This document shows, piece by piece, positions 50,643 through 64,000 of a stretch of DNA of 64,000 nucleotides (its first letter is position 1; the number at the start of each line of letters is the position of its first letter). The stretch is from Methyloprofundus sedimenti. GTDB lineage: Bacteria; Pseudomonadota; Gammaproteobacteria; Methylococcales; Methylomonadaceae. The notes beneath the pieces were generated by a model, which saw only the letters and a program-made list of their open reading frames with translations, had not been told where the DNA came from and did no database searches. Location: the NCBI RefSeq assembly GCF_002072955.1, contig NZ_LPUF01000002.1:124001-188000 (forward strand), in the 5' to 3' direction. A program made the position numbers and the translations under genes.

Positions 50643-52133
50643 TCAAGTTTTTAATTTACTCATTTCTAGTAATATTTTTTCACCTTTCACCAACGCCTTA
50701 AATAACGGCAAATCACTCTGGTATTTATGCATTAACGCTTGATAAATATTTTTTGCTTCTGCTTGTAGCTGATCTAACGCTTCTTTTCGTAAAATTCGGG
50801 CTTCTTTACGATCTATGTCTAATAAAAGCTGCTGTACGATTTGCTGGGCATTAGATATATATTGCTGCATTGCAGTATTTTTTATACCTACTATAAAGTT
50901 TGTATTGTATCCTACCGCTTTTTTAGCAAATATTTTATTGAGTGCTCGAGATAGGCGATCTTTTATTTCTAGCCCAGTGTCAATTACTTTTTCTATGCGT
51001 TCTAACTTGTCTTTATCCCAATGCTCAGGCATTGAATATAAATCATAAATACGACCTTTTATTGAACCTTTTGAAGCTATATTTCCACCAATTAATAAAT
51101 TAACTTTTTTTCTAGGAGCAAGCTTTCGAAACTGACTTACAATAAACGCAGGTGTTGTTACGCTTGATTCTGTTTTCCTGCCTAAAACATAAGAGGAAAA
51201 GTCTTGCCAACTTTGCCAATTTTGATCCCTCGCACAGACAGGAAATACTCCTTTATCATTTTGCGTAGTTGGCGTAAAAGGGTGTGGCCACCATTGCGCT
51301 CCTCCATCACGCCCCTCTTTTTTTGAGCCATAACTTCCCGTATATCTTAAATAACGAAATTCATTTATTGATTTATTCGATTGATGGCCACAAACATCAC
51401 AAATACAATTTTCATCTATTTCGGAAAAATCAATATGATATGCCAACGCAAATAAGCCACGTTCCAGGCCTATTTGGTGGGCATAATAAATATCCCCTAG
51501 CATAGGATCCTGCCACATTAACTTATTATTTGGTTCAGTTATTGCTCTTAATGATTCGAAAAAATCTATTGCAACCGTATTGGATAATACAGTCGTTTTT
51601 AAATTTTCTCCTGAAATCAGCGTTGACAATGAACCGCCACCTCGAATTCCAGTTGCTCCAAATTTTGAAAAACACTCTCCCTTAATATTCATATGTAAAT
51701 TATAATTTAATACATGAATACAATCTGGACAGACTATATTTGCCTGAGACACTTCTGAAAACAAACCTGATGCATCCTCAGACCCTCCACATTCAATGCC
51801 TGAGACAAGTTTTGTAATGGGAGCAGAATATATCTTACTTTCGTTTGGCATAGTTGAACGCATAAAACACTTTTCATCAAACCAATGTAAATCAACGTTG
51901 CATAATGCGAGATCATATTGCTCTGCCGTTAAACCATGCTTCAAATAGCTTTTTAATTCATTTAAAGCCGGCTTTATTACAACTGTGCTTAATGAGCCTA
52001 ATAACTGCAAAATTGCCAACTGAATTTCATCAAAAGCATATTGCAGTTGATAATCTGTATCAGAAGTTAAAAGCGTCTTTAAAGAAATTTTCCCTATAGT
52101 GGTGGAAATAAAATCATCGGTTAACAAGTTCAT
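50643..52133 (-). CDS. cas8e: Cas8e (Cse1/CasA), large Cascade subunit of type I-E
   Basis: A 496-residue Cse1. It starts MNLLTDDFISTT, the family hallmark. A zinc-binding pair lies in NIVCPDCIHVL near residue 133 and CICDVCGHQ near 246; the conserved GIRGGGSLSTLISG loop near 162 and the WWPHPFTP motif near 282 are present. The C-terminal helical bundle (330-496) is complete. Cse1 reads the PAM and recruits Cas3. The frame is uninterrupted, and it overlaps cas5e by four bases. In most I-E operons it is the first Cascade gene; here it is the last. Confidence 0.93.
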   Translation of the reverse strand: MNLLTDDFISTTIGKISLKTLLTSDTDYQLQYAFDEIQLAILQLLGSLSTVVIKPALNELKSYLKHGLTAEQYDLALCNVDLHWFDEKCFMRSTMPNESKIYSAPITKLVSGIECGGSEDASGLFSEVSQANIVCPDCIHVLNYNLHMNIKGECFSKFGATGIRGGGSLSTLISGENLKTTVLSNTVAIDFFESLRAITEPNNKLMWQDPMLGDIYYAHQIGLERGLFALAYHIDFSEIDENCICDVCGHQSNKSINEFRYLRYTGSYGSKKEGRDGGAQWWPHPFTPTTQNDKGVFPVCARDQNWQSWQDFSSYVLGRKTESSVTTPAFIVSQFRKLAPRKKVNLLIGGNIASKGSIKGRIYDLYSMPEHWDKDKLERIEKVIDTGLEIKDRLSRALNKIFAKKAVGYNTNFIVGIKNTAMQQYISNAQQIVQQLLLDIDRKEARILRKEALDQLQAEAKNIYQALMHKYQSDLPLFKALVKGEKILLEMSKLKT

Positions 52134-52753
52134 TTATCATATCTACTGCTGGCACAAACATAAACCATACGCATGGCATTTTTTCTGGGTATGCTGGTGA
52201 TTAAATCGCGTACTTGAAGCGTTGCAATTTGGTTTTCACCAGAAACATCACTAAAAATATGACCTTTTTTTGCCAATGCTTTTAATGCATTGGCAGGATT
52301 ATCATTGTTTATAATCGTTTCAAATAATGGACGTGTTAAAGGACAAGATTTACGACCTTGAAATAGAGTAAAGACAGGTGATTTAATTTTTGTTTGTAAT
52401 AACTTAATGGTTTCGTCATCCGCAGTTATCGCAAAGGAATGTTCACTATCACACCAGTATTCCCTATAAGTGGGTTTCGTGCCTTTTTGGATTTTCCCCA
52501 TTGGACTGCGAAAATTCTGTACCGTGTGATAATCCACTATTTTTTGCCCGGTATTATGCACTTGCACAGCAACCTTTAGCTGGTTAGATAAACGATACAA
52601 TTGCTCATGCTGATCGCGAGTAATCCCTATAGCAGCGCCTAACAAACCGAGTACTGCTGATCGTGTCGGAAAGTGATTAACTCTCCTATGCACATCAAAG
52701 GTTTGCAAGCCATAGGCTGACAGACCTTCTGTTCTTAGAATTAAGGTTTTCAT
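52130..52753 (-). CDS. cas5e: Cas5e (CasD), Cascade subunit
   Basis: A 207-residue Cas5e. It starts MKTLILRTEGLSAYGLQTFD with FPTRSAVLGLLGAAIGITR near residue 28, the typical Cas5 N-terminal fold, and DYHTVQNFRSPMGKIQKG near 77. Cas5 caps the crRNA 5' handle in Cascade. It overlaps cas8e by 4 bases and follows cas7e by 9, with AAGGTCAAG as ribosome site. The frame is intact. Confidence 0.93.
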   Translation of the reverse strand: MKTLILRTEGLSAYGLQTFDVHRRVNHFPTRSAVLGLLGAAIGITRDQHEQLYRLSNQLKVAVQVHNTGQKIVDYHTVQNFRSPMGKIQKGTKPTYREYWCDSEHSFAITADDETIKLLQTKIKSPVFTLFQGRKSCPLTRPLFETIINNDNPANALKALAKKGHIFSDVSGENQIATLQVRDLITSIPRKNAMRMVYVCASSRYDK

Positions 52754-52762
52754 AACTTGACC

Positions 52763-53791
52763 TTAATTAAAGTTGATGTCGCTAAGCTTGCTGACCAAAT
52801 AGATCTGTTCACTTTTGGCTGAATCAGTCATATCAAAGGCGATTGCTTTGGATTCTAGTTCATAGCCTAAAACTAATTTTTCATAATGAGAAATTAGACT
52901 GTTAATTGACTCTTCCATGACATCACTGTTATTTTTAATCGCACGTCTAAAGGCATTTGCTAAGGATAAAGGCTGATCAGACTTAGTAACCATGACAAAA
53001 TCCGCATGATTATGGGCAGCAAATGTTTTTTGCTTAGCAGAAGGTGAAACTTGTGCAAAACAGCGCACAACGGTATTAATGATGTCATTTAATTCTTGTT
53101 TGGATTTTTGAGTGTTTTCTGCAAGCAAATCCAGATTAATAGAAGCATAACGGTAAAACACACCAGAGCTAAATTCTGTTGTACCAATATGTCCTGAACC
53201 TTGCTCTGCTAAATCATCACAAGCGGTAAACCAGTCCACTTCAATATCAACACTGTGAGTGGTCAAACTGTGAGCAACACTCATAGCGGCTTCTACATTA
53301 CGCGCTGGACAACTCGCATCCATTCGACCCGATAAGGCAACGTCAATAGTGGGTAATTGGGGGATACTTTTTAATGCTTTCAGCTCAGTCCCAGCCAACA
53401 CCATATTAATAGCTTCCTTAATCGCGCCGAGCGCATAAGGCTGAACTGCATCAAATTCACGCCTGGTTTCACCCGTTTCCTTATTTTTTTCTTTTTTAAC
53501 TTTAGAGCCAAGATTTAACAACACGTCTTCAATTAATTTTGCATCAGCATCAGGTAATTCTTTTATACATAATGCAAATAGTTCATCGAATTTATTAGTA
53601 CGAATTGAAACTTCGTCAACCACCTTGCGATAGATGTAACTTTGTCTTATCGCTCTTTTTAAACATTGGCTAGAAATACGGCTACGGGTTCTGCCACCAA
53701 AAATAGCGGTTTTTTGTAACCCGTAATCATCACGGTTCATCATTGAAGAGGGGTGAGAAATCAGTGTATGGATATTAATAAATGTAGTCAT
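52763..53791 (-). CDS. cas7e: Cas7e (Cse4/CasC), Cascade backbone subunit
   Basis: A 342-residue Cas7. It starts FINIHTLISHPSSMMNRDD and has the RSRISSQCLKRAIRQSY segment near residue 36, the GRMDASCPARNVEAAMSVAHS block near 170 and a long C-terminal part with AKQKTFAAHNHADFV near 265. Six Cas7 copies normally coat the crRNA. The frame is intact. Confidence 0.93.
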   Translation of the reverse strand: MTTFINIHTLISHPSSMMNRDDYGLQKTAIFGGRTRSRISSQCLKRAIRQSYIYRKVVDEVSIRTNKFDELFALCIKELPDADAKLIEDVLLNLGSKVKKEKNKETGETRREFDAVQPYALGAIKEAINMVLAGTELKALKSIPQLPTIDVALSGRMDASCPARNVEAAMSVAHSLTTHSVDIEVDWFTACDDLAEQGSGHIGTTEFSSGVFYRYASINLDLLAENTQKSKQELNDIINTVVRCFAQVSPSAKQKTFAAHNHADFVMVTKSDQPLSLANAFRRAIKNNSDVMEESINSLISHYEKLVLGYELESKAIAFDMTDSAKSEQIYLVSKLSDINFN

Positions 53792-53812
53792 GCGCCTATT
53801 TCTTGAAATGAA

Positions 53813-54231
53813 TTAATCTTGTTGGGATAAAATGAAATCTTTTAATAAATTGCGTCTGGACTTATCGCTCCAGTATTGTGCAAGTTTGCCAATGCTGTCT
53901 GAATTAAGCTGTTTACTGCATATCAATTGACGCTTAAGGTATTCGATACCACTTTCGCCACTACGACTAATCTGTTTAATATGCTTTTCTTTAACACCTG
54001 CATAAATCAATGCCTTAGCCACTGAACGCGGTTATTCTTCATCATTGGCTATATCTACATCCACTAGCAAAAACAATATACACAACGTTTGTTGGTTATC
54101 GGGTAAACCGTCATTTTTAGCACACGAAAATAAGCGGGGGCATTGGCTATGTTTTTCAAATTACAGCGATTTAATTCAGCTTGATCCCCTTTTCCCAACC
54201 GACAGTAGGCTTCATAAATTCTTTGATACAT
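53813..54231 (-). pseudogene. cse2: cse2 (casB), broken by a frameshift and a stop
   Basis: The small Cascade subunit can be read from the ATG at 54231 (AAAGGAAAAAT before it): MYQRIYEAYCRLGKGDQAEL and NAPAYFRVLKMT in one frame. After a one-base loss near 54110 it continues GLPDNQQTLCILFLLVDVD in the frame of the remaining gene. An in-frame TAA at 54032-54034 follows, then SVAKALIYAGVKEKHIKQIS and the C-terminal helices (IGKLAQYWSDKSRRNLLKDF) to the stop at 53813. A full protein would have about 139 residues, a little short for Cse2 (about 160). Confidence 0.82.
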
Positions 54232-54242
54232 TATTTTTCCTT

Positions 54243-54785
54243 TTATTGTGTTCTGGCAAGCGATAATAATCCAGCGCCTGCATGTTTTTTACGACCTACC
54301 CCCATCACAACCGCATTATGAATTTTATCGGCATCGGTTATTTGTAATATGCCTTCAAAGGTTACAAAGCGGGATTTATAAATTTTTCGGCTATCCACTA
54401 ATGCAGAGTCCATTGAGGTCACTGTAACATTTGCCCCCGTTAATTTACGCTGCAACCACTGAATTTGTTCTGCCTGATCTTGAATTTCAATCACATTTCT
54501 AGCTTTACTTAATCGTTTGGTAGGATGTGCGACAAGTTTAAATCTACAATAATCACCATTTACCAAATTCAACTGAAAGACTTTACTTTTTAGAACTTCT
54601 ACCTTGTCACTACTTTTAGGTTCAGTGGATGATTGCAACAGAGCGACAATTTTCTCCTTGTTTTGGCTTTCAATTCGATACAAATGATCACGTTTTCGTT
54701 CAGGTGTATTGGGAAATAAACTCCAAATCGCTTGATGCTGCTCATAACTGTCAGTGGATTTTAAAACCACCTGTGAGATATACAT
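54243..54785 (-). CDS. cas6e: Cas6e (Cse3/CasE), crRNA-processing endonuclease
   Basis: A 180-residue Cas6e. The likely catalytic His is in DSYEQHQAIWSLFPN near residue 17, and the Gly-rich loop near the C-terminus is VMGVGRKKHAGAGLLSLA, matching the family's ferredoxin-like fold. It cuts the repeat hairpin and keeps the 3' handle. The frame is intact and AGGAG precedes the ATG. It sits directly after the cas3 remnant, not at the end of the Cascade run as in E. coli. Confidence 0.92.
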   Translation of the reverse strand: MYISQVVLKSTDSYEQHQAIWSLFPNTPERKRDHLYRIESQNKEKIVALLQSSTEPKSSDKVEVLKSKVFQLNLVNGDYCRFKLVAHPTKRLSKARNVIEIQDQAEQIQWLQRKLTGANVTVTSMDSALVDSRKIYKSRFVTFEGILQITDADKIHNAVVMGVGRKKHAGAGLLSLARTQ

Positions 54786-57172: not shown

Positions 57173-58197
57173 GTTGCAAAGCAATAAAAACTAGAAGTTA
57201 CGCATTGACAGTCAATGTTAAACTATAATACAGAAAAATGCCGAATCCACTATAAATCTAGACCTTGATAAGAGAAATAACCCGCCCATCAACTGCTCGT
57301 TGTACTTTACCGATGTACATAGGATTTTTGTTAAGTGAGCCTAAACAGGCTAGCTGTTGCCGGCTAGGAGAAGTTATGTCAATTTCACATGATAGCGTCA
57401 ACCGATTTCTGAATCGTGAATCGTATACCGGGCGCGATTTATATAACGAAGCCAGTCCTACTTTGAATTTAAAGGGCGGAACCTTAAGTGTTGACGATAG
57501 CGTACTGGATAAGCCTCATAGTCAGTACATGGCTTTTGTCAGTCATTTTTGGTCAGGCAAGCATCACCGAGCGGTCAAAGGGATTAACCTTGTTACTTTG
57601 TACTACACGGATACTCAAGGAAAACACCAACCTGTCAATTTTCGAGTGGTAGATAAAGCCGAAGGGAAAACAAAAAATGACTACTTTCTGGATATGCTTG
57701 CAGAGGTATTATCTTGGGGGCTTGAGCCAGGCTTTGTAACAGGAGATAGTTGGTACAGTTGCGTAAAAAATCTTAAACGGATTAGAAATCATCAGATAGG
57801 ATTGCTCTTTGCGCTGGAAAGTAACCGCTTGGTTTCTGTTGAAGAAGGAACATGGGTTCAAGTTAAGCAACTAGAAGTTCCAGAGGAAGGCTTGGTCGTT
57901 TGGCTCAAAAATTTTGGGTACGTGAAATTATTTCGGACAAAGTTGAAAGACCAACTTCGCCATTATATAAGTGCACTACCTAATGACGAGCAAACCAAGT
58001 CCTTTGGCAGTAGGGATTTTACCGAACAACATGATCGACATTGGCAAATTGAGCAATATCATCGTGCAATTAAGCAAGTATGTAACATTGAGCAATTTCA
58101 GGTTCGCAGCAAAGGAGCCATTAAAAATCACCTTTTTGCTGCAATTTGTGGGTTTGTTCAATTACAAAAATTGAGCTTCGCAGAGGTCATTAGTAAT

Positions 58198-59253
58198 GGC
58201 TATGTCACCGTTAAGTATTGAAAATCACCCAGAGCAGAATGTAACAATTGCTCAGGGGTTAGATTGTGGTTCCGATCCATAATTCTGCACCAAGCCAAAT
58301 AATTAGGTAAATACTTGGTGGCTACACCATGAAAGCGGTCTAGCCATGATTTAAAACGGTGGTGGTATGCATTGACATTTTGTATATGATAGGCCCCTTT
58401 AGTCACCCGCTGCCCTTGACTCATGTTAACGATTTCATGAGATACTTTTTCAGCTTTACAAAATGCACCATAAGTTGGATTGCCATCACTCACAAGGAGG
58501 GCATCCTGGTCTAGTATTGGCTTTAAATGCGTATCAAGAACAATTTTGCTTATTGGGCCATTACCTGTCACAAAATCTACGGTTTGTTTTGAGCGATCAC
58601 GAGCAATTAAAATGCACATTTGCTCATCAGAAATCCCTCGCTTAGTCGCACAGCCCCCTCGTTTCCTTGGTTGACGATTGAGATGGCGTTCTCCTTTATG
58701 TGACTCAAGTAAGTAGGTTTCATCAGCTTCTGTAATGCCATGAAGAGCACTGGGACGATCCTGCTGAATCCAGCTTAAAAAACGGTGCCGCCATCGAAAG
58801 GTTGTAGTTCGATGCACATTAATTTCTTTAGCTGCCTGCCGGACAGTCAATGATTCTGCGATAGCTCCTAAGTAATCAAGCCACTTTGACTTGAGGCGTA
58901 GATGAGCAAGAGGCGTTCCTGTCAAAGCATTAAATGTCTTTTTGCAGGCTTTACAGCGGTAGCGCTGAAGGCCATCTTTTATACCATGCCTGTGGCTTTC
59001 GGTATGGGAGCAATGAGGGCATTTACCTTTGCTATCAAATATTGTTTCAATTAAATCAAAAACCTTAGGTTCGTCCTCTAGTTGATCCAGTGCTTTCGTT
59101 AGAACAGTGCGTTGATGGTGGTCAAGTTGATTTATTTCGGAAATGAACTCTAAAAACTCTGGGGCTTTCATAACTATCTCCTTAATTTACATGGGCTTTA
59201 TTTACTTATACGCTCTTGTTATATGAAATTCCATACTTTACGGTGACATAGCC
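58198..59253 (-). mobile_element. IS1595-family insertion sequence with 8-bp target duplication
   Basis: Both ends carry GGCTATGTCACCGT, matching inverted for about 25 bases with few mismatches (58198-58222 and 59229-59253). TTAGTAAT is duplicated on both sides (58190-58197 and 59254-59261), the 8-bp target duplication typical of IS1595. It is inserted near the 3' end of the older transposase gene. Confidence 0.95.
58200..59171 (-). CDS. IS1595-family transposase
   Basis: A 323-residue transposase with an N-terminal zinc ribbon CPHCSHTESHRHGIKD-x-YRCKACKKTF (about residues 55-84), an HTH (TVRQAAKEINVHRTTTFRWR), and the DDE_Tnp_IS1595 catalytic domain (HGITEADETYLLESHKGER, LVSDGNPTYGAF, VNAYHHRFKSWLDRFHGVAT). 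The order is complete and uninterrupted. Its stop codon lies inside the terminal repeat. Confidence 0.95.
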   Translation of the reverse strand: MKAPEFLEFISEINQLDHHQRTVLTKALDQLEDEPKVFDLIETIFDSKGKCPHCSHTESHRHGIKDGLQRYRCKACKKTFNALTGTPLAHLRLKSKWLDYLGAIAESLTVRQAAKEINVHRTTTFRWRHRFLSWIQQDRPSALHGITEADETYLLESHKGERHLNRQPRKRGGCATKRGISDEQMCILIARDRSKQTVDFVTGNGPISKIVLDTHLKPILDQDALLVSDGNPTYGAFCKAEKVSHEIVNMSQGQRVTKGAYHIQNVNAYHHRFKSWLDRFHGVATKYLPNYLAWCRIMDRNHNLTPEQLLHSALGDFQYLTVT

Positions 59254-59664: not shown

Positions 59665-60528
59665 ATGAAAAAACGACCCGTATCATTTTGCGTATTTGCT
59701 GTCTTAGTAATTTTCAGCGCATTTCCGAGCTTAGTTGGCGCAGACCAGAATAGTCGGGACTTACCACCGGTTGGACCATACGGAGTTGCCGTAACCCCGG
59801 GCATTTATTTAGTAAATTTCTCACTCCTGTACATCTCGAATCCTAACTTGGCAGCTAACATGCCAGCATACAGGACGCCCATTCCTTTAGTGTTTTCCGA
59901 CTGCCTTGAGAAAAACCCACAAGGGTGCTCCTATGCCGCATTTGCACGCTTCTTCGGCGATAAGCCTTTCCCTCGAAGCAAAAGTTGTTCCTATCCGACA
60001 GCTTGTCAGGCGAACTCTAAATGGGAGCGATTGGCTCCGGGTATAGCAAGACGTCTTAGCCAGCTTAACGAACCATTGGGGCTGGATCGGGCCAATAAAA
60101 TCGCCCGAAGTCTTGGCATTGACAAGGGCATGATCCTGACCGATTGGGAATATCAGTGTATGATCGGGACGCCTGCAGACCGAGATGAAGACCAGGATAC
60201 TATTGTTACTTGCGTAAATAATCTCACTAATTCGAACGGAACCACAAACATTCCTCTTTCGAGTTATGGGTTATCTATTACTCAAAAGGGCGATGCACAA
60301 AGCGATTGCGCACCAGAAGCTCCCTGCCTCGTATTTAATGACCTATTCGATGGGCCACTAGAGAAAATTGCCATTAAGTGCGGATTCGAGCAGAAGCTGG
60401 ATCGTATGGTACGTGAAACGTCGTTTCCACAGCTCATAGAGAATGCTAACGGTTGTCAGCAATTCGGTATCAAGGAAACCAATGGTGCGTGCATAGTCGA
60501 ACCAGTCTGCTCTTCGAGATATGATTAG
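59665..60528 (+). CDS. cysteine-rich exported protein, function unknown
   Basis: A 287-residue protein with a signal peptide (KKRPVSFCVFAVLVIFSAF, likely cleaved after LVGA). The mature part has about 12 cysteines, enough for six disulfides, spread in pairs (DCLEKNPQGC, SCSYPTAC, DCAPEAPC, ACIVEPVC). AAAGGGAAAAAG serves as ribosome site. I do not recognise a family. It lies downstream of the nested insertion sequences, in a gap-rich accessory stretch, and has no operon partner. Confidence 0.72.
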   Translation: MKKRPVSFCVFAVLVIFSAFPSLVGADQNSRDLPPVGPYGVAVTPGIYLVNFSLLYISNPNLAANMPAYRTPIPLVFSDCLEKNPQGCSYAAFARFFGDKPFPRSKSCSYPTACQANSKWERLAPGIARRLSQLNEPLGLDRANKIARSLGIDKGMILTDWEYQCMIGTPADRDEDQDTIVTCVNNLTNSNGTTNIPLSSYGLSITQKGDAQSDCAPEAPCLVFNDLFDGPLEKIAIKCGFEQKLDRMVRETSFPQLIENANGCQQFGIKETNGACIVEPVCSSRYD

Positions 60529-61533: not shown

Positions 61534-61974
61534 TTAGTCGTCTCGCTTAAATTCCCCTTCTATTACGCCTGGTTCTGCTTTGGATTTTTGTTGCCCCGGA
61601 ACTACACCCGCCTGTATTAAACGTTTTTCAATGATGTATTGCGCAATTCTTCTGCGCACGGAAGGAATCAAGCAAGCAAAACCAATAACATCGGTAAAAA
61701 AACCCGGTGTTAATAATAATGCGCCTCCTACCAGCAAAATAGGACCTTCAACCATTTCATAAGCAGGAACTTCTCCGCGTTGTATGTTTTCCTGAAAACG
61801 CTGCCAGGTTGCTATGCCTTGATGTCTTAACAGGCCTGCGCCGATTATTGCAGTACTCACAACCAGGATAATAGTAGGAAATACGCCAACTATGCCTCCA
61901 ATTTGTAATAACAGATAAATCTCTATAAAGGGGACAATTAAAAAGGCTAAAAAGACGAGTTGGATGGGGTTCAT
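61534..61974 (-). CDS. fxsA: FxsA family membrane protein
   Basis: A 146-residue protein. It starts with a span FLAFLIVPFIEIYLLLQIG and has GALLLTPGFFTDVIGFACLIP near residue 88, the FxsA hallmark, followed by a basic tail. In E. coli FxsA limits the exclusion of phage T7 by the F plasmid; its normal role is unclear. A 478-base gap lies upstream. Confidence 0.92.
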   Translation of the reverse strand: MNPIQLVFLAFLIVPFIEIYLLLQIGGIVGVFPTIILVVSTAIIGAGLLRHQGIATWQRFQENIQRGEVPAYEMVEGPILLVGGALLLTPGFFTDVIGFACLIPSVRRRIAQYIIEKRLIQAGVVPGQQKSKAEPGVIEGEFKRDD

Positions 61975-62452: not shown

Positions 62453-64000
62453 ATGCACTATTTGAAATTTACTTTTGCCTGCTTTTTTATTCTTGTTAGC
62501 CACTGGGCCTATGCCATTGATCCAGATCAGTTATTGCCGCCTGATCAAGCGTTTAAAGTCTCCGCTACAGCAACAGAGGACGGCAACGTAAAGATTTCCT
62601 GGTTAATTGCCGATGGATATTATTTGTATCGCAAGAAAATTTCCTTTGCCTCAAAAACCAATTCGATAATTATTGAGCAAGCTGATTTACCAGCCGGTGA
62701 AATGAAAAAAGATCCAAATTTTGGTGATATGGAAATTTATCGCCATTCTATAGAAAGTCTTTTAACACTAAAACGCCCTGCTACTGCTGTACCGTTTTCT
62801 GTATTAATCAAACACCAGGGCTGTTCAGATTTGGGGCTTTGTTATCCACCGCAAAGTACCATTATAGATGTTCATTTGCCTGCTATAGATACACCACAGG
62901 GTAGCGGTTCATTTAATCCCTTAGATCAGTTAAGTAAGGGGCTGAATCTAGGCCTTCAGCTATTTTCTGATAAATTATTGCCTGCTGATGAAGCTTTTCA
63001 ATTTTTAGCCACAGTCAAAGATGGTCAAACATTAAATCTACAATGGCGCATAGCTGATGGCTACTATCTGTATCGGGAAAAATTTGCACTACAGTTATCA
63101 GGAGCCACTGATACGCAGATACTAAGTTATGAGATTCCTCACGGAAAAGCTAAATATGATGAAGCTTTTGGTAATGTAGAAATTTTGCATGATACTTTAA
63201 GTGTTAATGTGTCCCTTGCCCGCAGCAATCCCGACGCACACGAAATAACGCTTATTGCCAAGTTTCAAGGCTGTGCGGAGCGCGGGGTTTGTTATCCGCC
63301 GATGGAGCAGACAGTTAATTTACTCTTACCTGCTGTTTCAACTGCGGCAATCTCTATGCCTTCTGGTACAGTTAATAATAAACCCGCTTCTGAGCAAGAC
63401 CTTATCGTTGAATCTTTACAACAGGATTCTTTCTTCCTGACCTTATTAAGCTTTTTAGGCTTTGGTTTATTATTAGCCTTTACTCCCTGTGTGTTTCCGA
63501 TGATTCCCATTTTATCGGGAATTATTGTCGGCCAAGGCAAGGATATTACTAACCGCAAGGCTTTTTTCCTGTCTTTTAGTTTTGTCCTTGCTTCAGCAAT
63601 TACCTATACTGTTTTTGGGGTGCTTGCGGCTTTATTTGGCAGTAATCTCCAGGCTACTTTTCAGGCACCCTGGGTGATTTATCTGTTCAGTGGTATTTTT
63701 ATCATTTTATCCTTGTCGATGTTTGATTTTTATCATCTGGAACTGCCAAAATCCTTACAATCTCGTTTGCACAATGCCAGTAACAAGCACCGTGATGGAT
63801 CTTTTATCGGTGCGGCTTTAATGGGTGTCTTTTCTTCGCTGATTGTCGGCCCTTGTGTGGCTGCACCGCTGGCAGCCGCACTGATGTATATTGGTCAGAC
63901 AGGAGATCTCATTCTGGGCGGCTCTGCTTTATTTGTTATGGGCTTCGGCATGGGTATTCCACTACTGATTATTGGTACTTCGGCGGGTAGCTTATTACCC
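62453..64000 (+). CDS. dsbD: thiol:disulfide interchange protein DsbD, tandem N-terminal domains, 3' end beyond the edge
   Basis: A signal peptide (FACFFILVSHWAYA) precedes two N-terminal domains: the first (about residues 18-145) has SWLIADGYYLYRKKISF and a redox pair HQGCSDLGLCYPP; the second (about 165-300) has LQWRIADGYYLYREKFAL and FQGCAERGVCYPP. E. coli DsbD has one such domain. The membrane part starts near residue 325 with GLLLAFTPCVFPMIPILSGII, whose Cys pairs with another in VGPCVAAPLAAALMYI. DsbD brings electrons from thioredoxin to the periplasm. The C-terminal thioredoxin domain lies beyond the window. No operon partner seen. Confidence 0.93.
   Translation, partial: MHYLKFTFACFFILVSHWAYAIDPDQLLPPDQAFKVSATATEDGNVKISWLIADGYYLYRKKISFASKTNSIIIEQADLPAGEMKKDPNFGDMEIYRHSIESLLTLKRPATAVPFSVLIKHQGCSDLGLCYPPQSTIIDVHLPAIDTPQGSGSFNPLDQLSKGLNLGLQLFSDKLLPADEAFQFLATVKDGQTLNLQWRIADGYYLYREKFALQLSGATDTQILSYEIPHGKAKYDEAFGNVEILHDTLSVNVSLARSNPDAHEITLIAKFQGCAERGVCYPPMEQTVNLLLPAVSTAAISMPSGTVNNKPASEQDLIVESLQQDSFFLTLLSFLGFGLLLAFTPCVFPMIPILSGIIVGQGKDITNRKAFFLSFSFVLASAITYTVFGVLAALFGSNLQATFQAPWVIYLFSGIFIILSLSMFDFYHLELPKSLQSRLHNASNKHRDGSFIGAALMGVFSSLIVGPCVAAPLAAALMYIGQTGDLILGGSALFVMGFGMGIPLLIIGTSAGSLLP

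What the first reader, a model, noticed from the sequence alone, without database searches (positions are those of the whole stretch)
62453..63420. DsbD with two tandem N-terminal redox domains
Two copies of the nDsbD domain, each with its own Cys pair ending in CYPP, precede the membrane part. One copy is the rule in E. coli. The two copies have diverged, so they may reduce different partners or relay electrons in series.
Basis: partly seen in the sequence, partly recalled or inferred. Interest (0 to 1): 0.5.

Follow-up and report, generated by a model that had tools for sequence, protein, structure and literature searches.

The report
DsbD with two redox heads
This membrane protein, which carries reducing power to the bacterial cell envelope, has two delivery domains where the textbook E. 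coli version has one, and the two-headed form proves to be old and common in the same bacterial class, with both heads kept intact.

Summary
Window 62453..64000+ is the 5' part of a 745-aa dsbD gene (the rest lies on the same contig). It encodes two complete nDsbD domains (Pfam DsbD_N; 105.5 and 110.2 bits, cut-off 25), then the membrane domain and cDsbD. It is not an oddity of this genome: the tandem form is in 121 of 151 genomes of the family, 109 of 151 of the order and at least 116 of 369 of the class; none was seen outside the class in a phylum draw. Both Cys pairs are intact in 180 of 180 distinct N1 and 180 of 180 N2 domains. N1 and N2 are old paralogues: models built on other families sort them 43/43 and 43/43, one clade for all N1 is not rejected, and each keeps its own residues beside the active site (CYPPQ against CYPPM). 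Most single-headed DsbDs here carry the N2 type. AlphaFold gives two confident nDsbD folds joined by a disordered linker. Most likely cDsbD reduces both heads, as two parallel, partly specialised outlets. An obligate N2-to-N1 relay is less likely, since single-headed relatives exist. I found no paper describing it. A new variant of a known kind, of moderate interest.

The parts
62453..62515 (+). signal peptide of DsbD (residues 1-21, ending AYA)
   Evidence: reading of the translation; no predictor run
62525..62872 (+). N1, first nDsbD domain (PF11412)
   Evidence: 105.5 bits, profile 2-117 of 119; confident fold
62822..62842 (+). N1 active site C124-SDLGL-C130, then YPPQ
   Evidence: sequence; Cys pair kept in 180 of 180 N1
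62873..62968 (+). N1-N2 linker with a short hydrophobic segment (NPLDQLSKGLNLGLQLF)
   Evidence: pLDDT under 50 in the middle; a similar segment precedes the domain in most single-headed DsbDs
62969..63322 (+). N2, second nDsbD domain (PF11412)
   Evidence: 110.2 bits, profile 2-117 of 119; confident fold
63272..63292 (+). N2 active site C274-AERGV-C280, then YPPM
   Evidence: sequence; Cys pair kept in 180 of 180 N2
63434..64000 (+). membrane domain (DsbD_TM), cut by the window end; Cys C346 (63488-63490) and C468 (63854-63856)
   Evidence: PF02683, 331 bits, residues 328-545; Cys positions read
61534..61974 (-). fxsA, divergent neighbour
   Evidence: PF04186, 124.7 bits; present beside 35 of 59 tandem and 15 of 20 single dsbD loci

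Best explanation
A four-part DsbD: electrons go from cytoplasmic thioredoxin to the membrane Cys pair, to cDsbD (CISC), and then to either of two nDsbD heads on a flexible tether, each of which reduces thioredoxin-fold partners in the periplasm. Shown: both heads are present, match nDsbD in sequence and predicted fold, keep catalytic Cys and cap loop, and differ in a way conserved over many families. Inferred: cDsbD reduces each head independently (parallel outlets), and the heads have partly divided the partners between them. Not known: which partners, and the rates.
For: Two over-threshold domains, each matching nDsbD structures (Z about 16-17 over 110-119 residues at 1.6-2.6 A for the crystal structures). 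All eight redox Cys invariant in 63 of 63 aligned full-length tandem proteins (63 of the 72 full-length ORFs listed). Cys pairs 180/180 and 180/180. Cap-loop aromatic at the E. coli Y71 column: 146 of 180 N1, 169 of 180 N2. Old split: N1/N2 models from other families sort 43/43 and 43/43 family domains; holding all 37 N1 as one clade gives a tree 30.6 lnL better than the free search, p-AU 0.77. Distinct signatures: residue after CYPP is Q in 121 and H in 22 of 180 N1, M in 108 and I in 32 of 180 N2. Long disordered linker; pTM 0.50 against mean pLDDT 90, so no fixed contact between the heads is predicted. Relatives with one head, mostly N2-type, two N1-like, exist.
Against: No partner tells the two forms apart: adjacent TlpA is as frequent beside single dsbD, and DsbC was not tested against single-headed genomes. 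The domain tree has few well-supported forks (1 starred of 89). In the reverse model test 13 of 59 N2 and 4 of 59 N1 of the class sort the wrong way, with 1 N1 tied. E. coli and Neisseria nDsbD do not sort clearly with N2. Nothing here measures electron transfer.
Confidence: 0.5

Rival explanations
1. Redundant heads: the second nDsbD only raises the local concentration or throughput of the same outlet, with no division of partners.
For: Both heads keep the full active site; many relatives have a single head, so one is dispensable.
Against: Each head keeps its own residues next to the active site and at the cap loop over the class (E. coli F70 column: F/Y in 102 of 180 N1 but 46 of 180 N2; CYPPQ against CYPPM), which plain redundancy does not predict.
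Confidence: 0.3
2. Series relay: cDsbD reduces N2, N2 reduces N1, and N1 reaches distant partners.
For: The order on the chain (N2 next to the membrane part) and the long linker permit it.
Against: Known nDsbD steps are between an Ig fold and a thioredoxin fold (PMC7347389, passages: cDsbD is named the sole partner of oxidised nDsbD), not Ig to Ig. Single-headed relatives exist with N2-type and, for two loci, N1-like heads. No head-to-head contact is predicted.
Confidence: 0.12
3. Reach: N1 is the same outlet on a longer tether, specialised by position (away from the membrane) and not by surface.
For: Linker of about 30 residues without confident structure.
Against: Does not explain the conserved sequence signatures of each head.
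Confidence: 0.08

Closest known systems
E. coli DsbD (nDsbD-tmDsbD-cDsbD; 1L6P, 3PFU, 1VRS)
   Same: Both heads match nDsbD in sequence and predicted fold; membrane and C-terminal domains match; full-length model NF001419 (protein-disulfide reductase DsbD) 725.6 bits, cut-off 330.
   Different: Two nDsbD domains and a linker in place of one; 745 aa.
Neisseria meningitidis DsbD nDsbD (6DPS, 6DNV)
   Same: Best sequence match of N1.
   Different: The solved piece is a single nDsbD domain. I did not look at the gene.
ScsB, N-terminal part of Proteus mirabilis (6C29)
   Same: The solved periplasmic part is 247 residues long; N1 aligns to its first half (Z 10.8, 110 residues, 2.5 A). That it is a tandem of Ig-like domains I recall from the title of a JBC 2018 paper; not read.
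   Different: 14% identity; no sequence match even with a profile at E 10. I recall that only one of its Ig folds carries the redox Cys pair; not checked here.

Membership tests
DsbD (protein-disulfide reductase) | nDsbD domain with Ig fold | tested here: met
   PF11412 twice over cut-off; predicted folds at Z 16-17 to nDsbD
DsbD (protein-disulfide reductase) | CxxxxxC-YPP active site and cap loop in nDsbD | tested here: met
   Both heads of the window protein; Cys pair in both heads of 180 distinct tandem proteins, cap loop in most
DsbD (protein-disulfide reductase) | membrane domain with one Cys pair | tested here: met
   PF02683 331 bits; C332 and C454 of L095 invariant in 63 of 63
DsbD (protein-disulfide reductase) | C-terminal thioredoxin domain with CxxC | tested here: met
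   PF13899 62.4 bits; C647 and C650 invariant in 63 of 63
DsbD (protein-disulfide reductase) | whole-protein match to the curated family model | tested here: met
   NF001419, 725.6 bits, cut-off 330
DsbD (protein-disulfide reductase) | thiol reductase activity from cytoplasmic thioredoxin to periplasmic partners | not testable with these tools
   needs bench work
ScsB | ScsB-type N-terminal tandem Ig part | tested here: inconclusive
   The first part of 6c29 aligns to N1; no sequence match at E 10
ScsB | scs gene cluster (scsC neighbour) | not tested
   Neighbours seen are fxsA, a TlpA/ResA-like gene, aroQ, then by reading accB and accC; scsC was not searched for

The most novel reading that the evidence does not exclude
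A two-outlet DsbD, established by one ancient domain duplication early in Gammaproteobacteria, in which each head has its own conserved active-site signature and its own partners, so that the one-head E. coli scheme is a reduced or alternative form and not the general plan of the class; single-headed lineages then arose by repeated loss of one head (mostly N1), and one genus went further and keeps N2 as a free-standing exported protein.
Probability: 0.35. Interest if true: 0.55.

Novelty: new variant of a known kind. Interest (0 to 1): 0.36.

Why it matters
DsbD is described as a three-domain protein whose single nDsbD is the hub that serves DsbC, CcmG and DsbG (PMC7347389, passages). A natural version with two hubs on one chain, kept over tens of families, gives a way to ask how one reductant source divides its flow between partners, by removing one Cys pair at a time. 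It also warns that surveys with a single nDsbD query mix two paralogous domains.

Tried and rejected
Artefact or chance: rejected; both copies pass the curated cut-off and recur in many genomes.

Recent local duplication: rejected; window N1 and N2 are 35% identical, less than N1 to its nearest N1 (43%) or N2 to its nearest N2-type domain (56%).

Independent duplications: suspected for loci whose two stretches both matched the N2 half (among them G294, G342, G469, G320, G358, G515). With class models their first domain is N1-like (12.4, 4.3, 4.0, 23.0, 31.1 bits for L225-L227, L229, L230); with family models it is not. L228 (G320) was dropped as a duplicate of an earlier locus. Unresolved, not claimed.

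Adjacent TlpA as the special partner of N1: 37 of 59 tandem against 13 of 20 single loci; rejected (loci L175-L254, less L235 and those with under 1000 bases downstream). DsbC as the reason: 96 of 107 tandem genomes against 191 of the other 262 (my count by handle). The 262 mix single-headed, split-match tandem and DsbD-less genomes, so this was not a proper test of tandem against single.

Polarity of gain and loss: a linker-like segment stands before the head of most singles (21 of 23 over 8 bits, but the model was trained on tandem linkers and 117 of 185 pre-N1 segments also pass, so this is weak). It fits loss of N1, but also an N1 inserted behind the signal peptide. Not settled. Net charge differs on average (N1 -4.0, N2 -7.1); I make nothing of it.

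Faster evolution of N1: true in the family (mean identity 0.49 against 0.62) but not in the class (0.41 against 0.39).

Plasmid hits span about 380-470 bases, the length of one nDsbD, in the ten rows shown; not two-headed there. Phage-collection hits are DsbD in host-like or unannotated records, not pursued beyond.

Papers: 10 searches. None of the listings names a DsbD with two nDsbD domains. The library lacks most subscription papers and I read only passages or sections of three papers (PMC7347389, PMC8782879, PMC5524982). InterPro-type architecture listings were not available, so the architecture may well be listed there.

Full report
What is there. The ORF at window 62453 is dsbD; the window cuts it after 516 codons and the contig carries it to 745 aa. 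Pfam finds DsbD_N twice, DsbD_TM and a thioredoxin domain, each copy of DsbD_N over the cut-off, and NCBI's DsbD model matches with 725.6 bits against a cut-off of 330. The heads are N1 (62525-62872) and N2 (62969-63322), with C124/C130 and C274/C280. The genome holds one further DsbD_N match, at the end of a 786-aa DUF255 thioredoxin protein, without the CYPP motif.

How common. A profile of the tandem region (A1, 21 rows) finds both halves in one reading frame in 121 of 151 genomes of the family (120 rows spanning both halves plus G129 with two pieces), 109 of 151 of the order (108 plus G129; this draw shares genomes with the family draw) and 107 of 369 of the class, plus 9 more class genomes whose frames hold two domains by my own model. 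The handle lists were counted by script. The 107 lie in 58 coded families by my reading. The class table is cut at about E 3e-40, so these are lower bounds. In the phylum draw 10 of 299 genomes have spanning rows, all in the same class; 3 genomes outside the class match, each with one domain. The E limit there was 1e-20, so diverged tandems outside the class could be missed. Named relatives are mostly Methylococcales (Methylomonas, Methylobacter, Crenothrix, Methylocaldum), with Thiohalobacter, Chromatiaceae and Ectothiorhodospiraceae (best 80 of 562).

Both heads are kept. Among 383 distinct domains (180 N1, 180 N2, 23 single) the Cys pair is present in all. The YYLYR strand and the cap loop are kept in most. 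The genome-contig scan used a pattern of the N2 motif, which favours N2 but does not select on the N1 motif. In 63 full-length proteins (of 72 listed) all eight redox Cys are invariant.

The heads are old paralogues. Models of N1 and N2 trained on class genomes (59 each) sort all 43 N1 and all 43 N2 of the family correctly; the reverse test sorts 54 of 59 N1 (4 wrong, 1 tied) and 46 of 59 N2. The free tree is poorly resolved (1 starred fork of 89), but holding the 37 N1 together gives a better likelihood than the free search found, p-AU 0.772. Of the 25 single rows (23 loci and two references) the class models place 21 on the N2 side, 3 on the N1 side (L243, L245, Neisseria) and 1 tied; the family models place 21 on the N2 side and 4 on the N1 side (L243, L245, E. 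coli, Neisseria). The heads differ consistently next to the active site (CYPPQ/H against CYPPM/I) and at the cap position of E. coli F70 (F or Y in 102 of 180 N1 and 46 of 180 N2; A in 63 N2). For comparison, a published set of 134 nDsbD had F or Y at position 70 in 53% and at 71 in 85% (PMC7347389, section read); N1 has 57% and 81%, N2 26% and 94%. That paper links these residues to cap-loop opening, so the heads may differ in opening behaviour; this is inference.

Structure. AlphaFold of N1-N2 with 51 sequences gives mean pLDDT 90 and pTM 0.50, with residues 141-150 under 50: two confident heads and a loose linker. Both heads align to nDsbD structures at Z about 16-17; the next family is ScsB (6c29, Z 10.8). 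The full-length relative L095 gives pLDDT 86 and pTM 0.60, with the linker again under 50.

Surroundings. The gene order is fxsA (divergent), dsbD, a TlpA/ResA-like thioredoxin, aroQ, then by reading accB and accC. It is shared by single-headed loci, so it does not explain N1.

Mechanism. In E. coli cDsbD reduces nDsbD, which then reduces DsbC, CcmG and DsbG (PMC7347389, passages). By that scheme the tandem protein offers two outlets behind one pump. I favour parallel, partly specialised outlets (0.5) over plain redundancy (0.3), a series relay (0.12) and mere reach (0.08). None of the transfer steps was tested here.

Novelty. Membership in DsbD is clear; the doubled head is a variant. The paper searches found no description (calls named under Tried and rejected), within an open-access library only.

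Noticed in passing
L266:3506-4144 (-) and L267:1122-1661 (+), same family, genus code g14: Free-standing N2-type nDsbD proteins of 212 and 179 aa beside fxsA, at what looks like the dsbD locus. By reading they begin with a signal peptide and a segment like the N1-N2 linker; the first also ends in a possible membrane helix. Ten of 11 g14 genomes searched have only diverged DsbD_TM matches, among them 626-650 aa proteins; one (G040) keeps a 616-aa single-headed DsbD.
   Followed up: partly
L005:6613-8973 (+) (contig 1, not in the window): A 786-aa DUF255 (YyaL/DsbH-like) thioredoxin protein ends in a third DsbD_N domain with a C-x4-C pair and no CYPP; by reading, a repeat array that looks like CRISPR and Cas1/Cas4-like genes follow on the same stretch.
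   Followed up: no
L243 and L245: Single-headed DsbDs whose head scores N1-like, unlike most singles.
   Followed up: partly
62905-62965: The linker holds a short hydrophobic segment (PLxxLxxGxxLGLxLF) that recurs before the head of most single-headed DsbDs. Function unknown.
   Followed up: partly
52130-54785: CRISPR-associated genes: Cas5, CT1975-like and a CRISPR_assoc (PF08798) protein on the minus strand.
   Followed up: no
57265-59171: Two different transposases end to end, overlapping by some 20 bases (DDE_Tnp_1, plus strand; IS1595-type, minus strand).
   Followed up: no
59665-60528: 287-aa protein, by reading secreted and rich in Cys, without any Pfam match.
   Followed up: no
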